Source: Lysinibacillus sp. FSL W8-0992 (GTDB lineage Bacteria; Bacillota; Bacilli; Bacillales_A; Planococcaceae). Taken from it: DNA of 64,000 nt. Location of the stretch: NCBI RefSeq assembly GCF_038008685.1, contig NZ_JBBOZQ010000001.1:744001-808000 (forward strand), given 5' to 3'. Below are positions 41,349 through 55,306 of this stretch, piece by piece. Position 1 is the first letter of the stretch, and every line of letters begins with the position of its first letter. The position numbers and the translations under genes are program-made. The notes under the pieces were generated by a model, which saw only the letters and a list, made by a program, of their open reading frames with translations, was not told where the DNA came from and searched no databases.

Positions 41349-41828
41349 GTGAATATAACAATTGTATCAGTCGGAAAACTAAAAGAAAAGTACTTAAAAA
41401 TGGGGATCGACGAATACGTAAAACGCCTAGGTGGCTACGCAAAAATGGACGTAATTGAAGTACCTGATGAAAAAGCACCTGAGCAGCTAAGTGATGCAGA
41501 AATGGAAATTGTGAAGAAAAAAGAAGGCGAACGCATCCTTTCCAAACTTAGCCCAGACACATACGTTATTGCCCTTGCGATAAACGGCAAAATGAAATCT
41601 TCTGAAGAAATGGCAGCAGATATCGAGTCATTAATGACCTATGGAAAAAGTAAAATTGCCTTTGTTATCGGTGGTTCTCTCGGTTTGCACGAAGATGTCC
41701 TCAAACGTGCCGACGAGAAACAATCATTTGGCAAGATGACCTTGCCTCACCAATTAATGAAGCTTGTATTGATTGAACAAATTTACCGAAGCTTTAGGAT
41801 TATGAAGGGTGAACCGTACCATAAGTAA
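41349..41828 (+). CDS. rlmH: 23S rRNA (pseudouridine1915-N3)-methyltransferase RlmH
   Basis: RlmH is a SPOUT methyltransferase that modifies pseudouridine 1915 in helix 69 of 23S rRNA. The 159-residue protein is complete: NITIVSVGKLKEKYLK at the start, FVIGGSLGLHEDVLKRAD at the knot, and the end RSFRIMKGEPYHK. The last six codons are the att core used by the SCC-like cassettes; in staphylococci the same gene (orfX) receives SCCmec. The start is GTG 41349 with AAAGGTGG upstream. The insertion leaves the protein intact. Confidence 0.98.
   Translation: MNITIVSVGKLKEKYLKMGIDEYVKRLGGYAKMDVIEVPDEKAPEQLSDAEMEIVKKKEGERILSKLSPDTYVIALAINGKMKSSEEMAADIESLMTYGKSKIAFVIGGSLGLHEDVLKRADEKQSFGKMTLPHQLMKLVLIEQIYRSFRIMKGEPYHK
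41811..41828 (+). other. att site 1 (SCC-type attL in rlmH)
   Basis: GAACCGTACCATAAGTAA encodes EPYHK-stop of RlmH. It matches the S. aureus SCC site in orfX (GAAGCTTATCATAAGTAA) in position, reading frame and most bases. Similar 18-mers recur at 55289, 56889 and 59757. Confidence 0.9.
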
Positions 41829-41839
41829 GTGCGGTTTTT
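41825..41839. repeat. left terminal inverted repeat of cassette 1
   Basis: GTAAGTGCGGTTTTT is the exact reverse complement of 55262-55276. SCC elements carry such inverted repeats next to att. Confidence 0.85.
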
Positions 41840-41907
41840 AGTTTAAATGTAATATTGTGGTGGAATTTAGACTCACTCTAACGTACTATTTAAGTTGGGG
41901 TGATTAT

Positions 41908-42882
41908 ATGAATTTATTAAACAAAATAGAGATTTTAGATTTCATGAGAAAATCTGTTGCACCTTCATTAAGTGCGATTAAAAAGAAAAATATTAGAAAT
42001 CAAGAAAAAACAAAAGAAATGAATCAAATATTAGATGTATTAAGGAACTCATTATTTGAAGAAATAGATATGTATTATAATAATGAAGTACACTACCCTA
42101 ATAAAACTGCAGCAGCATTTTTAGTATATTATTGTTGGGTTATTGTTTCACTTGAATGTAGGAATACTTTATGGAATTATGAATCAATGGATCTTTCCCG
42201 TAGATCTGGAGAACTCTGGGAAAGTTTATTGAAACAATGTTGGTCATATCCTGTATTTAATACAGTGAAGAGATTTATAGCTCCAGATTTTATGGATGTT
42301 GCAGAAGGGATAAAATCTGCATTCAATAATAAGCTTCATAACAAACAAATCGAAGCTAATATTGTTAGGGAAATTTCTACTGAATATTCTACAATGTGGT
42401 CTATTTTAGGTGATAGTATAAATTTAAACAGTGACGAATTATTTGAGACAACTTTTAATGAACACGGCAATTTAGAAGTAAGTGATAAAAAGTATATTAT
42501 AGATTTTAAAGGTAGCTATGGTTCAAATGAAAAAGGAAACAAAGAAAGATTACTAACTGTCGCAAGGATTTATAACTTATTGAATAAATACAATTTAACA
42601 GATAAAGAATTCAATTGTATATTGGCTGTGCGTACAGTTGAAGCAGGGGGTCATAATTATTTAAGACAACTGGAATCTTCTAAATTGTGGTCTGTTTTAA
42701 GAGGTAATGAAGTTTATGAAATGATTTTTGAATTTACAGGATTCGATATATTATCATTTGTTAAAGAAAAAGACCTCCAAATTATGAAAGACTTAAACGA
42801 AGAAACTGCAGAATATATGAAATCTAAAATTACTTCAAAACAGAACAAAACGTTTGCTGACCATTATTTAACATGGTGGTAA
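41908..42882 (+). CDS. putative type II restriction endonuclease
   Basis: The 324-residue protein is not one I can name. Function is inferred from the neighbouring adenine methyltransferase and from YIIDFKGSYGSNEKGN (about residues 187-202), which looks like the hydrophobic strand and D-x-K of a PD-(D/E)XK nuclease core; a conserved acidic residue upstream would complete it. ATG 41908 follows GGGGTGA. It is the first gene inside the cassette, about 80 bp from att site 1. Its own terminator separates it from the methyltransferase. Confidence 0.65.
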   Translation: MNLLNKIEILDFMRKSVAPSLSAIKKKNIRNQEKTKEMNQILDVLRNSLFEEIDMYYNNEVHYPNKTAAAFLVYYCWVIVSLECRNTLWNYESMDLSRRSGELWESLLKQCWSYPVFNTVKRFIAPDFMDVAEGIKSAFNNKLHNKQIEANIVREISTEYSTMWSILGDSINLNSDELFETTFNEHGNLEVSDKKYIIDFKGSYGSNEKGNKERLLTVARIYNLLNKYNLTDKEFNCILAVRTVEAGGHNYLRQLESSKLWSVLRGNEVYEMIFEFTGFDILSFVKEKDLQIMKDLNEETAEYMKSKITSKQNKTFADHYLTWW

Positions 42883-42887
42883 ATTTA

Positions 42888-42926
42888 AAAAGCCTTAGTA
42901 TTGCTTCTGATACTAAGGCTTTTGTG
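42888..42926 (+). terminator. terminator after restriction endonuclease gene
   Basis: A perfect 13-bp stem AAAAGCCTTAGTA/TACTAAGGCTTTT (42888-42900, 42911-42923) is present; its T-rich arm is the termination tract. Confidence 0.88.
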
Positions 42927-42943
42927 TTAATATAATTACGAAA

Positions 42944-42967
42944 GATAAAACTTAAGATAAAACTTAA
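42944..42967. repeat. tandem 12-bp direct repeat before methyltransferase gene
   Basis: GATAAAACTTAA occurs twice in tandem, 19 bp before the methyltransferase start and partly over its likely promoter. It could be a regulator site; no C-protein gene was seen. Confidence 0.5.
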
Positions 42968-42986
42968 GTAAATATTTAGGAGGACT

Positions 42987-53332: not shown

Positions 53333-53420
53333 TTTAAGTTGAAAAACTGTATTATAATATACCTGTTTATGGGAAAAGAGAGCAGAAAAAACTAACATAT
53401 CGAGATCGGAGAGAAGGGTA

Positions 53421-54293
53421 TTGGAGAAACGTAGAAACCATTATGTTCCACAATTTTATTTGAAAGGTTTTTTGGATAATAGGGTAACTCCTCCACACGA
53501 ACCCAGTATATGGGTTTATGACAAGCAACTTGATAAATTAAAAAAGAAAGGTACAAAGAAAATTGCTGAACTAAATGGATATTATGATTTGAAATTAATC
53601 ACAGGTGAAATAACCACAGCGGTTGAAGATTTCTTTGATAAGAAAATTGAAAGACCTTCATCATCAATATTGAAAAAAATCTTAAGCCAAACTTTGTTAA
53701 CTGATGAAGAGAGAATTCAATTTTCTTACTTTATATACTTCTCATTAGCGAGAGTACCTAATTTCCTCAATTACATGACATGGTTTTATAGAAACAACGA
53801 TAAATTAGATTTTAACCTTAAAACAAGTACTGAGACATCAAAATTAGTAGATGTTACGCTTAGTTCTGAGGGTTTAACAACGCTAGAATTTATGATAGAA
53901 ATGTCTGAAATCTTTGTCCCGATTATTTATAGGATGAACTGGCAGTTTCATATTGCACCACAAAATAAGGATTTTCTAACATCAGACAATCCAGTAATAT
54001 TAAATGATCCAAGTTCGAAAAACATTCACCCCACTTTTATGGGGTGGAATAACCCTAATATTCACTTGACGTTCCCCCTGGATTCTGCAATGTGTTTAAG
54101 GGCAACATGGGGAAGGAAAAGAAAGACATATATTAAGGCTAGTCCCACATTTATGAGAGCGGTTAATTTTCGAACATCTTTTTTCGCTACACGTTATATT
54201 TTTTCATCAAGACCAATAGAGCCTCTCTTGTTAGATGGGGATTTCTTATATAATATGTCTGATATATATGAAAGTAAGCAAAACTGGGAATAG
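53421..54293 (+). CDS. DUF4238 domain protein
   Basis: The 290-residue protein begins with the DUF4238 signature NHYVPQFYLKGF and has FLTSDNPVIL followed by a Pro-rich loop and FPLDSAMCL in the second half, the core of the family. DUF4238 proteins occur often in genomic islands and near defence genes; their activity is not known. The start is TTG 53421 with AGAAGGG upstream. It sits in the right-hand cargo part of cassette 1. Confidence 0.85.
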   Translation: MEKRRNHYVPQFYLKGFLDNRVTPPHEPSIWVYDKQLDKLKKKGTKKIAELNGYYDLKLITGEITTAVEDFFDKKIERPSSSILKKILSQTLLTDEERIQFSYFIYFSLARVPNFLNYMTWFYRNNDKLDFNLKTSTETSKLVDVTLSSEGLTTLEFMIEMSEIFVPIIYRMNWQFHIAPQNKDFLTSDNPVILNDPSSKNIHPTFMGWNNPNIHLTFPLDSAMCLRATWGRKRKTYIKASPTFMRAVNFRTSFFATRYIFSSRPIEPLLLDGDFLYNMSDIYESKQNWE

Positions 54294-54476
54294 ATATTAT
54301 ACCGCATCAATGGTTCAGGTAGTAAGATATTTTATTTTACATTATAAAACAGTAAAGAGGTCTCATTTGTGTAAGAACTAAATTGAAGAAATATTTATAA
54401 TATTATATAATAAGAACGTAAGTTCCCGTTTGGGTGTGTTACTACTTTTTAAGTACTAATTTTTGGAGGGACTATT

Positions 54477-55244
54477 ATGTTTAAAAATATGATTTATTTT
54501 GATGCACAAAAAGTAGCTGAATACAAAGCAGTTCTAGAAGGAAAGAAACATGTAGCAATAAAAAATGTGAAAATATCTTCGTCTAAATCTTTAGATGCTA
54601 ACATTTCAGTATTTTCTGGGGGTATCGGTGGAACGAATGAAATGGAAGGTGAATTGATTGATAACCTAGTTTTAGATTGTAATGAGTTTGAAGAATTATT
54701 AAAGAAAAAAGGTGGAGACCACTATTTTGATTTAATGGCTACAGATTACGATATTGAGACAATTACAAAATCATCAATCATTTCATTCGAAGGGTCACTA
54801 AGTATTCCAAACGAGTTTGATATGATGGAATTGATAAATCAATTTAAACCTTTATTGATTAGTAGCATGAATTTAGCAAATGCTCAGGAAGAAGAGCTTT
54901 TTAAAAAGATTTTTGAAAAAGAGAGTACTAAAATTCCAATGTTTATTGAAAGTAGTCAATTAGGAGAAAGACAAGGCTTTACAAAATTAACATCAACAGA
55001 GTTACTTGTTGGCATGGAAGCATTAGAAGATTATGAAGAAGAGGAACTTACCTTTATTGCAAAAATTACATCTAGAAAGCAAGTGAAAGATAAACCTATT
55101 GTTGTTTTCGATATCATGAAGGACTTATTTTCTATAAGTAGAGGATTAAGAAGACAGATGGGGCAAAGTGAAATAGAGGGAATTGAAAATATCAAATCGA
55201 ACACAGATACTTTAGAACTAGAAGTGTTAGCTATTTATAGATAA
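54477..55244 (+). CDS. hypothetical protein, possibly DUF6414
   Basis: The 255-residue protein begins MFKNMIYFDAQKVAEYKAVL, which resembles DUF6414 proteins, though I am not certain. It has no membrane segment or catalytic motif I can point to. A beta-rich middle (GSLSIPNEFDMMELINQF) is followed by FIAKITSRKQVKDKPIVVFD. GGAGGGAC precedes the ATG. It is the last gene of cassette 1, 18 bp before the right inverted repeat. Island-associated and possibly defensive, by position only. Confidence 0.6.
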   Translation: MFKNMIYFDAQKVAEYKAVLEGKKHVAIKNVKISSSKSLDANISVFSGGIGGTNEMEGELIDNLVLDCNEFEELLKKKGGDHYFDLMATDYDIETITKSSIISFEGSLSIPNEFDMMELINQFKPLLISSMNLANAQEEELFKKIFEKESTKIPMFIESSQLGERQGFTKLTSTELLVGMEALEDYEEEELTFIAKITSRKQVKDKPIVVFDIMKDLFSISRGLRRQMGQSEIEGIENIKSNTDTLELEVLAIYR

Positions 55245-55261
55245 AATAAAATTCTATATTA

Positions 55262-55276
55262 AAAAACCGCACTTAC
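55262..55276. repeat. right terminal inverted repeat of cassette 1
   Basis: AAAAACCGCACTTAC is the exact reverse complement of 41825-41839. It lies 12 bp inside att site 2. Confidence 0.85.
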
Positions 55277-55288
55277 ATTAGTTACGGT

Positions 55289-55306
55289 GAACCGTATCAT
55301 AAGTAA
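55289..55306 (+). other. att site 2
   Basis: GAACCGTATCATAAGTAA differs from att site 1 at one base of 18. It marks the junction of cassettes 1 and 2. Confidence 0.88.

What the first reader, a model, noticed from the sequence alone, without database searches (positions are those of the whole stretch)
41811..55306. SCC-like cassette at the rlmH 3' end in a Lysinibacillus-like genome
Seen: an intact rlmH whose last codons form an 18-bp site repeated 13.5 kb downstream, with a Ccr-like serine recombinase, a DUF927 Cch-like ATPase, a DUF1643 gene and a RadC-like gene between. Known: in staphylococci, SCCmec uses exactly this site in orfX (rlmH), with ccr, cch and DUF1643 as backbone genes. Inferred: the same transfer system operates in this spore-former, making it a possible reservoir for or relative of SCC outside Staphylococcaceae. 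No mec or other resistance gene was found.
Basis: partly seen in the sequence, partly recalled or inferred. Interest (0 to 1): 0.88.

Follow-up and report, generated by a model that had tools for sequence, protein, structure and literature searches.

The report
SCC-like cassette array at Lysinibacillus rlmH
[quoted passage not shown] they are likely moved by the first cassette's own recombinase, a cousin of the enzyme that moves methicillin resistance among staphylococci. No resistance gene was recognised in the first cassette, and islands of this kind are already known in other Bacillota.

Summary
rlmH (41349-41828) ends in a 22-bp site (41808-41829) that recurs with one mismatch at 55286-55307. 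Between lie a Ccr-type serine recombinase, a Cch-type helicase, DUF1643 and RadC genes, a probable restriction-modification pair and other cargo, with 14-bp inverted repeats at the two ends. Two further copies of the site (56886, 59754) were missed: the 13.5-kb cassette is the first unit of a tandem array. In the genus (Lysinibacillus, by matching contig lengths) 23 of 29 usable loci carry such sites downstream of rlmH (53 sense, 1 antisense, 0 in shuffles). Against two empty sites, L. capsici PB300 shows a clean 14.65-kb insertion. Of 52 units, 44 lack a recombinase (median 2.7 kb), and three site-bounded blocks are shared between species at much higher identity than rlmH. The recombinase falls in a Bacillales clade apart from CcrA, CcrB and CcrC; in 23 of 24 family genomes with a CcrB-type match it lies within 30 kb downstream of rlmH. 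SCC-like islands at rlmH were already described in Enterococcus and other Bacillota, so this is a new member of a known kind. Excision and transfer are untested; nothing supports a resistance reservoir.

The parts
41349..41828 (+). rlmH, the target gene, intact
   Evidence: NCBIfam RlmH 256.5 bits
41808..41829 (+). site 1 (left end of the cassette, last codons of rlmH)
41826..41839 (+). left inverted repeat TAAGTGCGGTTTTT
   Evidence: read; motif follows rlmH in 24 of 29 loci
41902..42882 (+). probable type II restriction endonuclease
   Evidence: PADLOC REase_II E 7.9e-35; no Pfam family
42987..44495 (+). adenine-specific DNA methyltransferase
   Evidence: Pfam Eco57I E 2e-17
44591..45037 (+). 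RadC/JAB protein
   Evidence: Pfam E 7.3e-45
45079..45426 (+). 115-aa protein of unknown function that travels with RadC and DUF1643
   Evidence: no family; relatives beside both genes in L043, L054, L057, L070
45423..45941 (+). DUF1643 protein
   Evidence: Pfam E 2.7e-19
46408..47034 (+). 208-aa protein of unknown function, predicted helical
   Evidence: AlphaFold2 mean pLDDT 68.7
47155..47667 (+). 170-aa protein before the helicase gene; function unknown (possibly DNA-binding)
47681..49462 (+). Cch-type helicase (DUF927 plus Cch HTH)
   Evidence: PDB 5dgk E 3e-51
49608..51305 (+). Ccr-type large serine recombinase, single
51353..51381 (.). 12-bp inverted repeat between ccr and the Mor-like gene
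   Evidence: arms of 11 bp or more in 3 of 10 genomes with both genes
51395..51703 (+). Mor-family regulator gene linked to ccr (true start perhaps the GTG at 51424)
   Evidence: Pfam Mor E 1.2e-11; linkage
52246..53202 (+). 318-aa cargo protein, no family
53421..54293 (+). DUF4238 protein (cargo)
   Evidence: Pfam E 1.4e-38
54477..55244 (+). DUF6414 protein (cargo)
   Evidence: Pfam E 6.5e-08
55262..55275 (+). right inverted repeat AAAAACCGCACTTA
   Evidence: read; motif left of 35 of 53 distal sites
55286..55307 (+). site 2 (right end of the cassette)
55416..56201 (+). RlaP-type nucleotidyltransferase, second unit
   Evidence: Pfam RlaP E 6.7e-96
56886..56907 (+). site 3
57022..59073 (+). 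GAF-domain histidine kinase, unit between sites 3 and 4
   Evidence: shared with G021
59754..59775 (+). site 4, last of the array in the window

Best explanation
This is an SCC-like cassette of 13.5 kb at the 3' end of rlmH, the first unit of a tandem array, and its single Ccr-type serine recombinase is predicted to pair the two end sites, cut the cassette out as a circle and insert such circles at the last codons of rlmH. Shown: the sites, their inverted repeats, the gene content, the array, empty and filled sites in genus mates, and the rlmH-linked distribution of the recombinase. Inferred: that the Cch-type helicase copies the circle; that new units enter next to rlmH and push older ones outwards; that neighbouring units without a recombinase are moved in trans by Ccr or spread by homologous recombination; and that the Mor-family gene behind ccr regulates the system. 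The cargo (restriction-modification pair, DUF4238, DUF6414) is probably what the host gains.
For: Site copies and zero chance matches. Recombinase and helicase families. Sites in 23 of 29 rlmH loci, 53 sense against 1 antisense, 0 in five shuffles; inverted-repeat motif at 35 of 53 sites against 52 of 5800 random places. Clean filled/empty comparison: G003 against G002 and G011. Recombinase within 30 kb downstream of rlmH in 23 of 24 family genomes with a CcrB-type match. Three blocks bounded by sites at both ends shared between species well above rlmH identity. A staphylococcus-family genome with CcrC over NCBI's cut-off (G124) has the same left-end motif, tgcggttttta, behind its rlmH; the other one looked at (G256) does not.
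Against: No excision, circle or transfer was observed or could be. The window's own empty-site junction is not letter-perfect: homology resumes about 210 bp right of site 4. The empty-site genome G002 has a weak site (3 mismatches) at L053:3165 behind the next genes, so even that flank may be an old unit. CcrB and Cch curated cut-offs are not reached. 16 of the 19 shared blocks are not site-bounded at both ends, so ordinary recombination also moves material here. One further recombinase copy (G407) is far from rlmH, and one (G361) cannot be placed.
Confidence: 0.8

Rival explanations
1. The array is an old, immobile island: Ccr-type recombinases put the units there long ago, and what spreads them now is homologous recombination between flanking genes and repeats.
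For: 16 of 19 high-identity shared blocks are not site-bounded at both ends, and the window's RadC-DUF1643 block, 93.6% identical to one in G026, has no site at either end. 44 of 52 units lack a recombinase; some sites are decayed.
Against: Three blocks end at sites on both sides and 12 of 38 block ends lie at sites where 1.4 are expected; the window's recombinase and helicase genes are full-length and intact; G003 is a clean insertion.
Confidence: 0.15
2. The cassette is a prophage or conjugative element that happens to use an rlmH-directed serine integrase.
For: Large serine recombinases are common in phages; 435 phage records match the recombinase at E 1e-20 or better, all under 60% identity.
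Against: No phage structural or conjugation gene was recognised among the cassette's proteins; no near DNA match to phage or plasmid records; the Cch-type helicase and DUF1643 point to SCC.
Confidence: 0.03
3. The repeats are not recombination sites but host sequences, such as copies of the conserved rlmH end or of a terminator.
For: Similar sites occur away from rlmH (about 21 of 81 genome-wide places), some with a different left flank.
Against: Chance expectation is zero; 53 of 54 sites lie on the sense strand, many carry the inverted-repeat motif, and they mark the filled/empty boundary in G003.
Confidence: 0.02

Closest known systems
SCC-like islands of Bacillota with a DUF927 helicase and one large serine recombinase (Bacillus subtilis Bsp4, B. 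mycoides BPN51/1; PMC10061031, passages seen)
   Same: rlmH insertion for most of that paper's elements, one large serine recombinase, DUF927 helicase, restriction-modification cargo, some tandem composites; B. subtilis recombinases fall in the same 27-row clade as the window's (whether one of them is Bsp4's was not checked).
   Different: Those carry a polymerase-like plus OB-fold SSB pair before the helicase; here the two proteins in that place showed no such fold in low-confidence models (inconclusive).
Staphylococcal SCC elements
   Same: rlmH end as target, direct and inverted repeats, Cch-type helicase, Ccr family, DUF1643, composite arrays.
   Different: Single recombinase outside CcrA, CcrB and CcrC; Mor-like gene behind it; no SAUGI or DUF960 match; other gene order than the S. 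epidermidis example (helicase-ccrA-ccrB-SAUGI-DUF960-DUF1643); host genus.
Enterococcus cassette chromosome (PMC6222049, abstract and passages seen)
   Same: Insertion in the 3' region of rlmH, att repeats, variable cargo; transfer was shown there with a helper plasmid.
   Different: Uses a ccrAB pair; att of about 50 bp.

Membership tests
Staphylococcal cassette chromosome (SCC) | Insertion at the 3' end of rlmH with flanking direct repeats | tested here: met
   filled/empty pair in genus mates
Staphylococcal cassette chromosome (SCC) | Inverted repeats at the ends | tested here: met
   14 bp exact, read; motif at 35 of 53 distal sites in the genus
Staphylococcal cassette chromosome (SCC) | ccrA/ccrB pair or ccrC | tested here: not met
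   409 bits against a CcrB cut-off of 900, 346 against 900 for CcrC, 118 against 700 for CcrA; separate clade
Staphylococcal cassette chromosome (SCC) | Cch-type replicative helicase beside ccr | tested here: met
   DUF927 plus Cch HTH domains, best solved-structure match 5dgk (that this is the SCCmec Cch is recalled); but under the NCBIfam equivalog cut-off (259 of 700)
Staphylococcal cassette chromosome (SCC) | Host in Staphylococcaceae | tested here: not met
Staphylococcal cassette chromosome (SCC) | Precise excision and insertion by Ccr | not testable with these tools
   needs a culture or a recombination assay
SCC-like rlmH islands of Bacillota (PMC10061031) | Large serine recombinase and helicase on an island at rlmH | tested here: met
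SCC-like rlmH islands of Bacillota (PMC10061031) | Polymerase-like plus OB-fold SSB pair before the helicase | tested here: inconclusive
   low-confidence models of the two proteins; no clear fold match for the 170-aa one, the 208-aa one was not fold-searched
Enterococcus cassette chromosome | ccrAB pair | tested here: not met
   one recombinase ORF in the cassette; two CcrA-type queries match only that gene within 41801-59800
Integron (compared only for its cassette array) | Tyrosine integrase IntI | tested here: not met
   the cassette's recombinase is of the serine family; attC sites were not searched for

The most novel reading that the evidence does not exclude
The rlmH region of Lysinibacillus is a genus-wide, integron-like cassette store built on SCC chemistry: a Ccr-bearing cassette beside rlmH captures, stacks and hands on small recombinase-less gene cassettes across species, all bounded by the same site, with the Mor-family protein encoded behind ccr as the direction or switch factor for Ccr.
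Probability: 0.25. Interest if true: 0.75.

Novelty: new member of a known kind. Interest (0 to 1): 0.5.

Why it matters
It places the SCC way of moving genes (rlmH end, Ccr-type recombinase, Cch-type helicase) in a genus of spore-formers with a clear array architecture: most units seen have no recombinase of their own, so whether Ccr moves cassettes in trans becomes testable in laboratory hosts. It also offers a candidate regulator (the Mor-like gene) for a family in which I recall no directionality factor (recalled only; the 15 listed of 84 papers were not read for this, save passages of one). It does not show a resistance reservoir.

Tried and rejected

Rows dropped: one search listed three rlmH sites (L052, L054, L063) among the distal ones; one search corrects this and uses up to 2 mismatches instead of 3. 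leave out L056 and L060 (under 15 kb held); G005 had no rlmH match. From the second tree I left out five rows of the first (phage integrase, CcrA, G012b, G026bA, G008) after the first tree warned of long branches, and added nine of the staphylococcus-family loci; both trees use a choice of the homologues (15 of the 120 listed, of 2523 found).
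Full report
What is there. The window is G000:C1:744001-808000 of a 4.69-Mb genome. rlmH is intact and ends in GGTGAACCGTACCATAAGTAAG (41808-41829). The same 22 bp with one mismatch stand at 55286-55307, and copies with two mismatches to the degenerate site at 56886 and 59754; none is expected by chance. Just inside the first pair are exact 14-bp inverted repeats (read).

Gene content of the 13.5-kb unit. Probable restriction endonuclease and adenine methyltransferase; RadC/JAB; a 115-aa protein; DUF1643; a 208-aa and a 170-aa protein of unknown function; a Cch-type helicase (DUF927 plus Cch HTH; best solved structure 5dgk, E 3e-51); one Ccr-type serine recombinase; a Mor-family regulator; a 73-aa protein; a 318-aa protein; DUF4238; DUF6414. 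No mec or other resistance gene was recognised. Fifteen sense-strand proteins of 73 aa or more between rlmH and site 2 were scanned against Pfam; ten proteins were scanned against PADLOC and ten, rlmH included, against NCBIfam. Smaller and antisense ORFs were not scanned.

Array and genus. rlmH was found in 31 of 32 genus genomes, the window's included; the stretch downstream was fetched for 30 relatives, 20 kb each except two cut short by contig ends. In 29 loci with more than 15 kb (the window's and 28 relatives'), 23 have at least one distal site with up to 2 mismatches in 21 (53 sense, 1 antisense, 0 in five block shuffles). The right-end motif ACCKCACTTA (up to 2 mismatches) precedes 35 of 53 sites and 52 of 5800 random places; the left-end motif follows rlmH in 24 of 29. 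The sites bound 52 closed units: 8 with a recombinase gene or fragment (8.3-18.9 kb) and 44 without (median 2.7 kb). A stricter 18-bp pattern gives 81 places in the 32 genomes by my count of the list, and 0 for the reversed pattern; 60 lie within 35 kb downstream of rlmH, 18 elsewhere, and 3 in G005, where no rlmH was found.

Empty and filled sites. In G002 and G011 rlmH runs directly into the flank that in G003 lies right of a 14.65-kb recombinase cassette: a clean insertion. In the window, homology to that flank resumes at about 59985, some 210 bp right of site 4, so its own junction is not letter-perfect; and G002 has a weak site (3 mismatches) behind the next genes (L053:3165), so that flank may itself be an old unit. 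The close relative G021 shares 56435-69261, including sites 3 and 4, but has other small units in place of the recombinase cassette and the RlaP unit.

Recombinase. 2523 homologues at E 1e-20 or better, 120 listed: 81-92% identity in Lysinibacillus, a Bacillus and unnamed sources, 74-76% in Priestia flexa and the B. cereus group, 52-56% in many Bacillales. In a tree of 52 recombinases the window's lies in a 27-row Bacillales clade (100/99), apart from staphylococcal CcrB with its near kin (9 rows, 99/98), from CcrC (2 rows), and from a 7-row clade holding recombinases of G012 and G026 that have a second recombinase gene beside them. A first tree of 48 rows with a CcrA and a phage integrase agrees but warns of long branches. 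In the family, 24 of 250 genomes have a CcrB-type match at E 1e-90 or better, none over NCBI's cut-off; by the printed coordinates it lies within 30 kb downstream of rlmH on the same contig in 23 and on another contig in one (G361); of two further copies one (G026) is also downstream of rlmH and one (G407) is far. In named genomes fetched with flanks of up to 10 kb, 25 of 79 loci show rlmH within that reach, among them Bacillales, Clostridia and Lachnospiraceae; in the other 54 it is farther, cut off or absent.

Movement. 19 blocks of 300 bp or more are shared between genomes at least 6 points above the identity of their rlmH stretches; 12 of 38 block ends fall within 60 bp of a site in at least one of the two genomes (1.4 expected), and three blocks do so at both ends: G025/G031 99.5% over 2218 bp (rlmH stretch 93.4%), G016/G018 95.2% over 2418 bp (86.5%), G030/G009 98.7% over 1347 bp (88.1%). 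No recombinase was seen in these three. The window's RadC-DUF1643 block is 93.6% identical to one in G026 (rlmH stretch 81.6%), without sites at its ends. So both site-bounded and ordinary exchange are visible.

Mor-like gene. It occurs in 10 of 250 family genomes: in 9 of them 0.1-1.4 kb behind the recombinase, and in the tenth (G017) near a recombinase fragment. In 8 genomes compared it is 74-93% identical to the window's, where the adjoining recombinase is 50-53%. Its families are transcription activators. A regulator or directionality factor is possible; nothing here tests it.

Known and new. SCC-like elements at rlmH are published for Enterococcus (PMC6222049) and other Bacillota including Bacillus and Planococcus (PMC10061031), some tandem. 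I saw the abstract and passages of the first, passages of the second, and passages of PMC7581432, PMC9782665 and PMC13296057. No listing showed, by title and abstract start, a paper on such elements in Lysinibacillus; of the papers that hold the word together with SCCmec or rlmH I opened only PMC9782665, where the passages concern a transposon. The library misses most subscription journals and all preprints. The window is therefore a new member of a known kind; the genus-wide array of recombinase-less units and the Mor-like partner are its less ordinary features.

Noticed in passing
G000:C1:3981396 and 4021839 (L072, L071): Two more site-like sequences far from rlmH in the window's own genome (2 and 1 mismatches). 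The first is followed by the left-end motif and lies beside a gene 85% identical to one in the rlmH region of G004.
   Followed up: partly
L114, L115, L116, L117, L120: Small arrays of sites at other chromosomal places in genus mates. In G030 the genes that flank the window's array on the right sit beside such an array on a contig without rlmH, which suggests rearrangement.
   Followed up: partly
L072, L119, L121: Several of the sites away from rlmH share another left flank, close to TAATATTAGTTTC, in place of the usual right-end motif.
   Followed up: no
L059 (G012), L064 (G008), L113 (G026): Other genus members carry two neighbouring recombinase genes or fragments at rlmH, so single and paired types coexist in the genus.
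   Followed up: partly
L054:9736-10581: In the L. capsici PB300 cassette a 281-aa protein that looks by eye like a tyrosine recombinase lies between the helicase and ccr genes; it was not scanned.
   Followed up: no
window 56198-56438: A remnant 88-90% identical to stretches in G023 and G024, in G023 right behind a site, suggesting one more decayed unit between sites 2 and 3.
   Followed up: partly
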